DNA of 43,601 nucleotides from Blastocystis sp. Blastoise (lineage: Eukaryota; Sar; Bigyra; Opalinata; Blastocystidae): assembly GCA_039096225.1 (NCBI GenBank), contig JBBPEB010000030.1, forward strand, positions 1,077,501 through 1,121,101. Direction: 5' to 3'. Numbering within the stretch: position 1 is the first letter of the stretch; every line of letters starts with the position of its first letter. Shown piece by piece: positions 35,546-42,776 of this stretch. A model generated the notes under the pieces. That model searched no databases, was not told the origin of the DNA, and was given only the letters and a program-made list of their open reading frames with translations. The position numbers were made by a program, and so were the translations under genes.

Positions 35546-36422
35546 TTAATATTTTTTAAGATGACAAAATAAAAAATCTTTAGCTTTTAATTGTTCAGAA
35601 TTGATATCGATATTATCATAATCAAAATTCCTATATATAATTATATATATATATATAAATATATATACATATTTTTAAGTATTTTAAATCCACTTTTGAT
35701 TGAAATAAATTCTTTTGTAAATTTATTAATTATTCCAAATATTAATAATGAATTATTAGTATTATAAGATTTATCACACTATATTGATAATATATATATA
35801 TATATTAAAAATAATATAAAATACTTTTCGATATTGAGTCATAATCTTTATATTATTATTATTCATTTTAAATAATCTATATTTAATTAAAATATAATTC
35901 AAATAATAATATAGAATACTTTTTGATCTGTTTAATTATGGTATTAAGATTGTTATCATTACCATTAATGGAATCAAAAAAGTTATATACATTAATAGTT
36001 AATGTTTTTTTCATATTACCATTTGATAATTTATTTAGAAGTAAATAATATTTATCATCTTTTCTATATATAAATATTTTATTAATTTATTATTAAAATG
36101 AATAATATATATATATATATATATATATATACTTATAATATATTGTATATATGAAGAATATAGTAGAATCTTGATAAAAATATTCTTCAATTTCTTTACA
36201 TAAATCTGAAATCTATTTTTAAAAAATAATAATAGAATAATAGTTTAATAAAAATATATATTTATATACAAGAGAATCATTAATGAATTCTTCATAATCA
36301 AAATTATTATGAACAAGTTGATTAGAAATATTAGGCATTGATTCTAATTGTTTATAAGTAGTTAAAAATAAATAATAATCAAATATAGTATTAGGAAATG
36401 ATCCAGTATGTATAAAATTGTA
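35546..36422 (-). other. C-terminal domain, weakly Ulp1/C48-like
   Basis: Residues 1508-1714 (exons 21-26). The order of segments recalls the Ulp1 fold: SFPNTIFDYYLFL (like WLnD..I..Y..L), STIFFIYTIYY followed by KYYLLLNKL (like f.Pi....HWvLav), NVYNFFDSING (like ..yyDSlg), then IKIMTQYRKC and SLLIFGIINKF (like the Q..DCGvfvl region). The His and Cys of an active SUMO protease are not at the expected places, so it would be a non-catalytic relative. This is inferred from pattern only. Confidence 0.22.
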
Positions 36423-39400
36423 CTATATATATATAATATTTAATTATTAAATATTATATATACATATTCTGTTTCTTTAACTTGTATTTCTTTATCTATA
36501 GAGAATAATATATTTAAAAATAAAATATTTTATAAATAGAGGATATACTGACTACATTAAATGAATCTTGATTGTTAATCATTATAGAAAGTATTTGAGA
36601 TTGATCATTTATATTATTATTATTAGTTGTATTATCTATAGAATATTATAATAGAATTAGAATATGTATACTTTGAGAAGAATTATAAAAAGTTGAATTT
36701 GATTGAATAGATGATTGAGAATCTATTCTATTATTATTATTAACATTATTGATATTATTATAAGGAATATCTATATCAATAGAATCATAATTAGAATCAT
36801 TGATATCACTAGGTATTATATTATTAGCATTTATAAGATCCATATTGTAATTCATTAAATGATGTTGATTATAATTTTTGTTATTAAGAGATTCAGAAGT
36901 TGTATTATTATTTAATAATTGAAAAGACTTAATGATACTATTATTATTATTATTATTTAGATTATTATTAATCGTATTCATATTATTATTATTATTATTC
37001 ATATTCATGTTATTATTAATATTATTATTCATATTCATGCTATTATTAATATTATTATTCATATTCATATTATTATTCATATTATTATTATTATAATTAA
37101 AAATAGTATTGAATGAACTATTATTTGTAGTATTTGCAAAACTCAAAGATTCATTTAAATTATCATCATTATTATATTGAGTATTATTATTTTCATTATT
37201 TATTTGTTTATCAGAAATAATGGACATATTAAATATATCTAGATCATCAGTAGTATTTTCAATAATTGGAAGGGGAGAATAAGAATATTGAATAGAATTA
37301 TTATAATTATTATTATACTCATCATCTAATGATTCATTTAAATAATTTTGGATAGAATTAGTATTATTTTTATTAATCATAATATCATTTTGATTTTGAT
37401 TAATAGAAGGAAGAAGAATAGGAGAAATTGGTATTGAATTATAATTATTATTATTATTATCATTAAATTTGATAATAGGAGAAACAATATTTTGAGGAAT
37501 AATTGAATTAGATTGTTGTATCGAATTATCTATTATGGTTTTCTTTTGTTCAATCTATAGTATTATATGTTTTATATAAAATTAATATACTTTTTTAGAA
37601 TATTCATTATTATTATTTAATTGATTACTATCATCATTATTTGATATCTATATATATATATATATATATATATATATATATAATAAGAATAACATAATAA
37701 ATTAAAATACATTTTTGGTAATATCTTGTTTTGATTCTATATAACGATGTATATCATAATCTGATGTACATTTTCTTACTAAACATTCAAATGTACATTC
37801 CTATTGAATTTAATAAATAAATAATAATTAAATAATATTATATAATGAATAATATAATGAATAAGTAATATAATAAATAATATAATAAATAAATGAATAA
37901 TATATACTAAAGCATTGTGAATAGTAATAAGACTTCCATTTGAATCTCTTTCAGGTACATAATAATTCATGTCTTCTGCAAATTTTTTTCTCTAATACAT
38001 AAGTAATAAATACCTTGACACCAAGTTCAGAAGTACAGAGATCTTTCAATTTGAAATTATTCTTATCATATACAGTTTTATAATTGGTATTGAGGTTGTA
38101 ATATTTGTCGTGTACATCATTTGTATGATGACAACTTCTAATAAAACTATTACAATAAAGAGGATTGATGCAATTTGTACTTGCAAACCAGGTTGCAAAA
38201 CAATGCCTGTAAGAGTAGCCAGAATGGTCTTTTGGAATATTATTGAATAACTTATTCAATTCATTTTTACTACTATAAATAAATAATTAATAATAATAAA
38301 GTCTATAATAATAATAATAATAATAATAATAATAATAATAATAACAATAATAATAATAATAATAATAATAAAATATAATAATAATAATAATAATAATAAT
38401 AATAATAATAATAATAATAATAATAATAATAATAATAATAATAATAATAATAATAATAATAATAATAATAATAATAATAATAATAATAATAATAATAATA
38501 ATAATAAATATAATAATAATAATAAATATAATAATAATAATAATAATAATAATAATAATAATAATAATAATAATAATAATAATAATAATAATAATAATAA
38601 TAATAATAATAATAATAATAATAATAATAATAATAATAATATACCGTGTAGGATAAATACTATGTGGAAATTCAGAAACTTTATAATTACTAATAGAATC
38701 TTGTTTTCGTATATATAAGAATAAATGATCAGAGTATTTTATAGATAGACTTGATAAATAATCACATATTTTTTCTCTAACATCTATATATTTATAATAT
38801 AATTTTTGAAATTTTTCACAAAATATATATATATCAGGATATTGTGTTCCATCAGAATAAGGAATGTTACCATTTTTAGAATTTATATGTATAATATATA
38901 TATATTCTTTATTATTATCTTTTTCTGATCTAAATATTTTAATATTCTTGTTTAACTGCAAATTAATTAAATCACTATTTCTCAGAGGACTTCCAGTAGC
39001 AGTTTGAAGTAAGTACATTGTAAGATATGTAATTTTAGTAAACTTCTTAATACTTATATTATTAATTTTTTTTTGTTTATTAATTTCTTCTATAAGTTGA
39101 TCTAGTTTAATATATAACGTATTGGTAATATTATAGAAATCATCTAATCCTATTAATGCCTCTTTCTTTTCATTTTTAGATATTTCTTCATATTTTTTTG
39201 TATCATTAGTACGTATGTAATTATTATCTGTAACCATTACACAAGATTTTTTACATATCCATTTTAAGGATTCCTTTACTATTTGTATTATTGAATTATC
39301 CATATATGTATTCTTTCTCTGTATGTATTTTATTATTTTTTCTATTTCTAATAATCTATTCGAAATTGTTTTAGCACAACCAGCTTTTGGTTCAATGCAT

Positions 39401-42400: not shown

Positions 42401-42776
42401 TAAGATTGAGTTCTTGAGACTTTAGCTGCCTATAAAATATAAAATATAAAATATAAAATATAAAATATAAAATATAAAATATAAAATATAAAATATAAAA
42501 TATAAAATATAAAATATAAAATATAAAATATAAAATATAAAATATAAAATATAAAATATAAAATATAAAATATAAAATATAAAATATAAAATATAAAATA
42601 TAAAATATAAAATATAAAATATAAAATATAAAATATAAAATATAAAATATAAAATATAAAATATAAAATATAAAATATAAAATATAAAATATAAAATATA
42701 AAATATAAAATATAAAATATAAAATATAAAATATAAAATATAAAATATAAAATATAAAATATACGTTATTTTGCAT
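35546..42776 (-). CDS. 26-exon gene for a 1714-residue tyrosine recombinase fusion protein
   Basis: Exons: 42776-42765, 42429-42399, 42282-42154, 42104-42039, 41954-40798, 40728-40587, 40521-40478, 40431-40372, 40332-40273, 40213-40145, 40085-40026, 39941-39625, 39526-38645, 38272-38014, 37991-37908, 37800-37711, 37647-37591, 37554-36672, 36635-36549, 36495-36464, 36422-36270, 36212-36133, 36063-35920, 35876-35825, 35778-35669, 35630-35546. Together they make 5145 nt, exactly 1715 codons with the TAA stop, and every junction keeps phase. All introns are GT-AG. ATG at 42776 was chosen because the 12-nt first exon joins in phase. Order: SUMO-interaction-like motif, Ser/Pro and poly-Asn region, helical domain (about 466-880), tyrosine recombinase (about 880-1096), Asn-rich linker, C-terminal alpha/beta domain (1508-1714). 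Known relatives cut and rejoin DNA through a tyrosine; Crypton- and DIRS-type transposons use such enzymes. Whether this copy is a transposon or a host gene is open. Confidence 0.85.
36672..37554 (-). other. Asn-rich linker exon (exon 18) of the recombinase fusion
   Basis: 883-nt exon encoding residues about 1174-1467, dominated by Asn with NNNMNMNN repeats and scattered Ser, Ile and Asp. It connects the recombinase to the C-terminal domain. The repeat at about 36990-37090 has 30-45 bp units with Met interruptions. Confidence 0.85.
37992..38013 (-). other. Candidate 22-nt intron in the recombinase gene
   Basis: GTCAAG|GTATTTATTAC...TATTAG|AGAAAAA. Removing these 22 nt shifts the frame from one that ends in TGA 15 codons after the last unspliced residue (K1096) to one that stays open through RKKFAEDMNYYVPERD and joins all later exons in phase. 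Without it the protein would end at about residue 1111, shortly after the recombinase domain. Confidence 0.65.
38014..39076 (-). other. Tyrosine recombinase catalytic region of the 26-exon gene
   Basis: By residue number in the predicted protein: box I ATGSPLRNSDLINLQ with R898, the beta-hairpin lysine in IHINSKNGN (K933), box II SGYSYRHCFATWFA with R1032 (the usual H of HxxR is Y1029 here), then CHHTNDVHDKYYNL with H1059 and, nine residues on, Y1068 as the expected nucleophile (Y1067 adjacent). Spacing and order are those of the lambda-integrase/Crypton superfamily. Exons 13 and 14 split the domain between the box I and lysine half and the box II and Tyr half, at R1010. All catalytic positions are present, so the enzyme is probably active or under selection. 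Confidence 0.85.
38273..38644 (-). repeat. Intron 13, filled by about 335 bp of TAA trinucleotide repeat
   Basis: The intron between the two halves of the recombinase domain runs from CACG|GTATATTATT to TTTATAG|TAGTAAAA. (TAA)n fills 38304-38641 with a few interruptions (ACAA, AAAT). Read through, the minus strand would give only Ile and Tyr codons, which is not credible protein. Confidence 0.85.
40952..41173 (-). repeat. Uninterrupted AAT repeat encoding about 74 Asn in exon 5
   Basis: A perfect triplet repeat, (ATT/TTA)n on the + strand, keeps the AAT frame in the coding direction. It is flanked by interrupted Asn-rich codons. It lies between the Ser/Pro-rich N-terminus and the helical domain and probably forms a disordered linker. 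Confidence 0.9.
41900..41954 (-). other. SUMO-interaction-like motif at the N-terminus of the recombinase fusion
   Basis: The predicted residues 83-91 read MILISDSDS and lead into Ser/Pro repeats. A short run of aliphatic residues (ILI) followed by alternating Asp and Ser is the shape of a phospho-regulated SUMO-interaction motif. The motif is short and lies in low-complexity sequence, so it may be chance. Confidence 0.35.
42430..42764 (-). repeat. Intron 1, a 7-bp minisatellite (AAAATAT)n of about 47 copies
   Basis: Perfect heptamer array at 42431-42763 lying exactly between exon 1 (ATG...AATAAC|GTATATTTT) and exon 2 (TTTATAG|GCAGCTAAAG). The repeat itself supplies both the GTATAT donor context and the TTTATAG acceptor context. 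An open frame across it is a property of the repeat and is not coding. Confidence 0.9.

What the first reader, a model, noticed from the sequence alone, without database searches (positions are those of the whole stretch)
35546..42776. One 26-exon gene encodes a 1714-residue tyrosine recombinase fused to a SUMO-like N-terminal motif and a novel C-terminal domain
On the minus strand I could join 26 exons with no stop and no phase error over 7.2 kb, ending in a TAA with a total of 5145 nt. Chance agreement at 25 junctions is negligible. The core is a tyrosine recombinase with R898, K933, R1032, H1059 and Y1068 in place. The large N- and C-terminal extensions are unlike integrases or the usual short Crypton proteins that I know of. 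It may be an undescribed class of recombinase transposon or a host-adopted enzyme, for example for programmed rearrangement.
Basis: partly seen in the sequence, partly recalled or inferred. Interest (0 to 1): 0.88.

Follow-up and report, generated by a model that had tools for sequence, protein, structure and literature searches.

The report
Subtelomeric tyrosine recombinase genes in Blastocystis
Near many chromosome ends of a gut protist (Blastocystis sp. Blastoise) sit copies of a large, intron-rich gene whose core looks like a DNA-cutting-and-rejoining tyrosine recombinase; selection has preserved it, and it resembles but matches no described transposon enzyme tested here.

Summary
The gene is real. 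My gene finder gives a 28-exon chain ending at the same stop. A diverged family in the same genome keeps the layout: 16-17 of 26 introns at the same position and phase in 6 of 8 diverged copies compared, 14 and 15 in the other two; dN/dS 0.15-0.41 for one pair. The genome is Blastocystis sp. Blastoise; NCBI lists diverged copies as 'hypothetical protein'. Corrections: a 28-nt 'intron' hides a frame shift in this copy; the first exon is unproven; 'SUMO-like' is better read as a SUMO-interacting-type motif. The core has R-K-R-H-Y, with Tyr where most recombinases have the box II His, as reported for Starship captains. Profile comparison supports box II (0 of 100 shuffles). Of 16 long copies, 15 lie within 55 kb of a contig end, all 16 transcribed away from it, inside larger duplicated blocks. 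No element boundaries or relatives outside this genome were found; structure prediction failed. Most likely a catalytically intact, subtelomere-resident recombinase family of Crypton/captain-like origin, spread mainly by exchange between chromosome ends.

The parts
35546..42429 (-). Multi-exon tyrosine recombinase gene (25 exons of my chain); first exon(s) upstream of 42429 uncertain
   Evidence: Gene finder; conserved introns; NCBI models of diverged copies
42154..42282 (-). Exon with conserved N-terminal motif LETxQLSIxSxxEKTRQS and a basic stretch
   Evidence: conserved in both clades
41914..41943 (-). SUMO-interacting-type motif ILISDSDSDS (clade B: ILIDDSSS)
   Evidence: alignment; motif type recalled, not tested
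40798..41954 (-). Long low-complexity exon (Ser/Pro-rich, then poly-Asn), with a FPIEAS-FSPI motif also seen in clade B proteins
40026..40728 (-). Acidic/helical region made of six short exons; dN/dS 0.153 between one clade A and one clade B copy over its conserved 110 aa
38645..39526 (-). Main recombinase exon: putative core-binding region and first half of catalytic domain (Arg I codon 38982-38980, Lys codon 38877-38875)
38020..38272 (-). Second catalytic exon: box II Tyr 38217-38215, Arg II 38208-38206, His 38127-38125, presumed nucleophile Tyr 38100-38098
37992..38019 (-). 28-nt stretch skipped as an intron in my chain; coding in sister copies; hides a frame shift in this copy
36672..37554 (-). 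Asn-rich linker exon
35546..36422 (-). C-terminal domain of about 207 aa over six exons, no known match, dN/dS 0.36
42431..42763 (.). (TATAAAA)n array, 47.6 copies, in the putative 5' intron
43601..43601 (.). Contig end (C20); sister contigs C33 and C14 align from their own last base to this one

Best explanation
A subtelomere-resident gene family encoding a catalytically complete tyrosine recombinase of Crypton/captain-like origin. The core is inferred to cut and rejoin DNA through a 3'-phosphotyrosine and a Holliday junction at sites not yet known; the N-terminal basic stretch and SUMO-interacting-type motif are inferred to serve nuclear and chromatin targeting; the C-terminal domain is unknown. 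Shown: motif order and spacing, conserved introns, purifying selection for one pair of copies, location near contig ends, spread within larger duplicated end blocks. Inferred: DNA cleavage, origin from a transposon, and that copies now spread mainly by exchange between chromosome ends rather than by cut-and-paste of the gene alone.
For: Profile comparison puts box II onto the XerD-type RHxFAT box (score 26.0; 0 of 100 column shuffles reach it, maximum 20.0), and a second, collinear but individually weak hit (16.55) pairs Arg I and the Lys hairpin. His to Tyr spacing 9, Arg I to Arg II 133-134. Four motif boxes intact in 16 of 16 long copies. dN/dS 0.154 in the catalytic core and 0.153 in the acidic region, L011 against L022. 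16 long copies on 12 contig ends, 12 within 15 kb, all transcribed away from the end (contig lengths). Telomeric CCCTAA repeats at the contig start, about 7.1 and 3.6 kb outside the first conserved exon, on C26 left and C17 left. 12 of 13 clade B copies share about 2.4 kb or more of upstream DNA; the three clade A copies share DNA from the contig end to the limit of the stretches fetched, window 34050-34071.
Against: Pfam, PHROGs, NCBIfam and PDB sequence searches give no recombinase, only weak hits to unrelated or unknown families. AlphaFold2, run on single sequences, gave no usable model (pLDDT 44.9 and 43.6). Box II lacks the usual His. The partial copy on C23 lies 47 kb from a contig end and faces that end, and a degenerate copy on C28 is internal. 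No activity, expression or target site is known. The dN/dS values rest on one pair of copies with dS 0.87-1.33.
Confidence: 0.6

Rival explanations
1. A still-active Crypton-like or Starship-like transposon whose element includes this gene and which targets chromosome ends.
For: Multi-copy, very similar copies, spaced 20 to 25 kb apart on C26 (three) and C13 (two); recombinase nearest the chromosome end and transcribed inward, as a captain lies at one edge; Tyr in place of box II His as in captains (PMC12506042, passages read); Cryptons known in oomycetes and a diatom (PMC3212892, passages read). In the three clade A copies one TATGG lies upstream and one downstream of the gene.
Against: No boundaries: copies lie in longer shared blocks. 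TATGG occurs six times in each clade A stretch, so the bracketing pair may be chance (no chance count was made), and the five clade B copies looked at have a single TATGG, inside the gene. No convincing intact gene in the 14 kb between two copies on C26, judged by a finder trained on this gene and by ORFs of 90 aa or more, without a family search. Many conserved introns.
Confidence: 0.25
2. A domesticated host enzyme with a chromosome-end function, such as end recombination or maintenance.
For: Location at 12 contig ends, conserved intron-rich gene, purifying selection.
Against: 34 contigs have 68 ends, so most ends show no copy (some ends may be unassembled); a partial (C23) and a degenerate (C28) copy; some long copies truncated upstream (L026) or frame-shifted (window).
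Confidence: 0.12
3. Not a recombinase: a fast-evolving unknown nuclear protein whose motifs resemble one by chance.
For: No database family hit; no usable structure.
Against: Shuffle test and collinear second hit, spacing, low dN/dS in the catalytic region, though the acidic region is equally low.
Confidence: 0.03

Closest known systems
Crypton (CryptonS and CryptonF of oomycetes)
   Same: Eukaryotic tyrosine recombinase, found in stramenopiles, some elements with a C48 peptidase in addition (PMC3212892, passages read)
   Different: R-H-R-Y tetrad there, Tyr at the box II His here; no element termini established here; multi-exon gene, NCBI proteins of 1648-1837 aa (a fifth is 1015 aa), with an unmatched C-terminal domain
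Starship captain (DUF3435)
   Same: Arg, Lys, Tyr-x-x-Arg, Tyr active-site pattern (PMC12506042, passages read); recombinase at the outer edge reading inward
   Different: Captains are described from Pezizomycotina (PMC12134995, abstract start in a listing); no Pfam hit to DUF3435 at E 1 or below; no cargo or boundaries found
Subtelomeric single-gene repeats such as yeast Y' helicase (recalled)
   Same: One gene carried in repeated chromosome-end blocks
   Different: Helicase there, recombinase here

Membership tests
Tyrosine recombinase superfamily | Arg I, Lys, box II Arg, His/Trp and Tyr in order with Tyr 9 after His | tested here: met
Tyrosine recombinase superfamily | His or Lys three residues before box II Arg | tested here: not met
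   Tyr in both clades; captains also have Tyr there (PMC12506042). The comparison set was selected by a pattern demanding His or Lys, so its 76 of 77 His is no independent count
Tyrosine recombinase superfamily | Catalytic fold | tested here: inconclusive
   AlphaFold2 on single sequences, pLDDT 44.9 and 43.6
Tyrosine recombinase superfamily | Match to a curated family model | tested here: not met
   Core against Pfam, PHROGs and NCBIfam at E 1 or below: no recombinase family
CryptonS | 5-6 bp terminal direct repeats, often TATGG | tested here: inconclusive
   no bracketing TATGG pair in the 5 clade B copies looked at; one bracketing pair among six TATGG in each of the 3 clade A copies; boundaries unknown
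CryptonF | GCR1_C DNA-binding domain | tested here: not met
   No Pfam match in the core at E 1 or the C-terminal domain at E 10; linker and N-terminus not scanned
Starship captain | DUF3435 domain | tested here: not met
   No such Pfam hit in the core at E 1 or below
Starship | Large element with cargo, direct repeats, empty sites | tested here: inconclusive
   No boundaries visible within the stretches fetched
C48/Ulp1 peptidase (C-terminal domain) | Profile similarity to Ulp1-type proteases | tested here: not met
   best score 11.2, reached by 77 of 100 shuffles, against a thin profile of 8 sequences
DIRS/Ngaro | Reverse transcriptase beside the recombinase | not tested
   No dedicated search was made

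The most novel reading that the evidence does not exclude
A new lineage of eukaryotic tyrosine recombinases, with a captain-like Tyr-x-x-Arg active site outside fungi and a new C-terminal domain, that lives at chromosome ends and drives site-specific exchange between them.
Probability: 0.15. Interest if true: 0.85.

Novelty: new variant of a known kind. Interest (0 to 1): 0.5.

Why it matters
Tyrosine recombinases are described as rare in eukaryotes (PMC3212892, passage). A conserved, intron-rich family near chromosome ends in a gut protist would extend the known range of these enzymes, and offers a testable case of a recombinase tied to subtelomere exchange. A Tyr at the box II His position outside fungal captains would bear on how that active site arose.

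Tried and rejected
C48/Ulp1 identity of the C-terminal domain, suggested by eye and by the Crypton paper: not supported by a profile test with 8 sequences nor by Pfam. Anaerobic-fungus origin, guessed from composition: the CBM_10 search found nothing, but its controls rang nowhere either; one search then named Blastocystis. Rfam on window 24000-43601: one match far below its gathering score. Conserved piece at window 24.9-26.6 kb: similar in frames of both strands, so not read as a gene. TATGG termini: inconclusive. A first protein search with the core alone found nothing because full-length relatives lay outside its length limits. IMG/VR search for relatives: 302 pattern matches, none confirmed, from only two short patterns. 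Paper searches listed no paper that by title or abstract start describes this family; one search found no paper holding both 'Blastocystis' and 'Blastoise'. Besides listings I saw passages of PMC3212892, PMC12506042 and PMC3129679. The recalled idea of Blastocystis stop codons made by polyadenylation was not tested.

Full report
Check of the observation. Twelve 7-base block shuffles of the same DNA score at most 25; the reversed sequence scores 140 and the opposite strand 62. Training on the locus favours the window, so the stronger test is comparative. The finder also adds upstream exons that NCBI's models of relatives lack, so its 5' end is not trusted.

Relatives in the genome. One exon has 17 DNA matches, the window included. 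A protein search scored 58 candidates and lists 67 matches, which fall into 16 long copies, a partial one on C23 and a degenerate one on C28. Three long copies, including the window's, are 95 to 99% alike by piece (clade A); thirteen form clade B, 70 to 84% like the window in the aligned pieces. Junctions of sister copy L011 recur with the same position and phase in 14, 15, 16, 17, 16, 17, 17 and 17 of 26 cases in eight clade B copies (eight of thirteen were compared). dN/dS between L011 and L022 is 0.154 in the catalytic core, 0.153 in the acidic region, 0.311 in the putative core-binding part, 0.362 in the C-terminal domain and 0.405 around the N-terminal motif. That is one pair of copies, with dS 0.87 to 1.33.

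In the window copy a homopolymer length difference shifts the frame. The exon at 42776 is untested.

Organism. The full-length search (7999 candidates scored) returned five proteins, all 'hypothetical protein' of Blastocystis sp. Blastoise; two lie on contigs whose lengths equal those of C14 and C25, three on one of 1317030 bases that equals no length seen here. Lineage. All five are of clade B by sequence; no annotated clade A protein appeared. Four of them were compared with six of my models: 1640 to 1830 identical residues each, and in five of the six comparisons NCBI's model lacks two short exons that both clades conserve. No other organism appeared.

Recombinase identity. No curated recombinase family matched. 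A profile of 77 recombinases (76 viral, plus XerD) gives two collinear local hits: box II at score 26.0, with 0 of 100 column shuffles reaching it (maximum 20.0), and Arg I with the Lys hairpin at 16.55, which alone is within the range of shuffles. An earlier run with default realignment aligned nothing useful. The Tyr at 419 is aligned to the box II His of XerD; for the Sanctuary captain the residue matched to Cre H289 is a Tyr, and HhpA is reported to need its counterpart (PMC12506042, passages read). Both structure predictions used a single sequence and failed.

Flanks and mechanism. Fifteen of 16 long copies lie within 55 kb of a contig end, twelve of them within 15 kb; the sixteenth lies 85 kb away. 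All 16 are transcribed away from the nearest end (positions; lengths). Against this, the partial C23 copy lies 47 kb from an end and faces it, and the C28 relic is internal. Two left ends carry telomeric repeats outside the gene. Twelve of 13 clade B copies share upstream DNA; L026 does not. Clade A copies share DNA from the contig end into the neighbouring gene region, to the limit of what was fetched. Between two copies on C26, 14 kb hold no convincing intact gene, so a cargo element is not shown. TATGG, the usual CryptonS end, brackets the gene once in the clade A copies and not in the five clade B copies looked at. The simplest reading is a recombinase gene family carried along by exchange of chromosome ends. 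Whether it also moves itself is open.

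Noticed in passing
window 486-23674: Tandem array of 30 5S rRNA genes, most spaced by about 790 to 830 bp, on the plus strand.
   Followed up: no
window 31167-31411: Neighbouring plus-strand gene with a fibro-slime domain (TIGR02148, E 2.8e-10, 40.5 bits, below the curated cut-off of 45). A short relative of another part of the gene lies on C26.
   Followed up: partly
window 24087-24731; L033 31-658: Repeat at 83.5% identity that lies next to the degenerate recombinase exon on C28; its copy number could not be counted because the genome search did not complete.
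   Followed up: partly
window 43601; L011, L012: Three contigs (C20, C33, C14) end at the same base of the shared block although not identical, which may be an assembly limit or a real end structure.
   Followed up: no
window 42431-42763: (TATAAAA)n array of 47.6 copies with 100% matches; the pattern also occurs on C14 and C31, with single matches on C4 and C10 (listing cut).
   Followed up: no
clade B loci L014-L026: Synonymous differences among clade B copies are near zero in the core (mean pS 0.000 over 66 pairs of 12 copies and 0.012 over 39 pairs of 13 copies) but 0.07 in the C-terminal domain (36 pairs of 11 copies), which may point to gene conversion.
   Followed up: no
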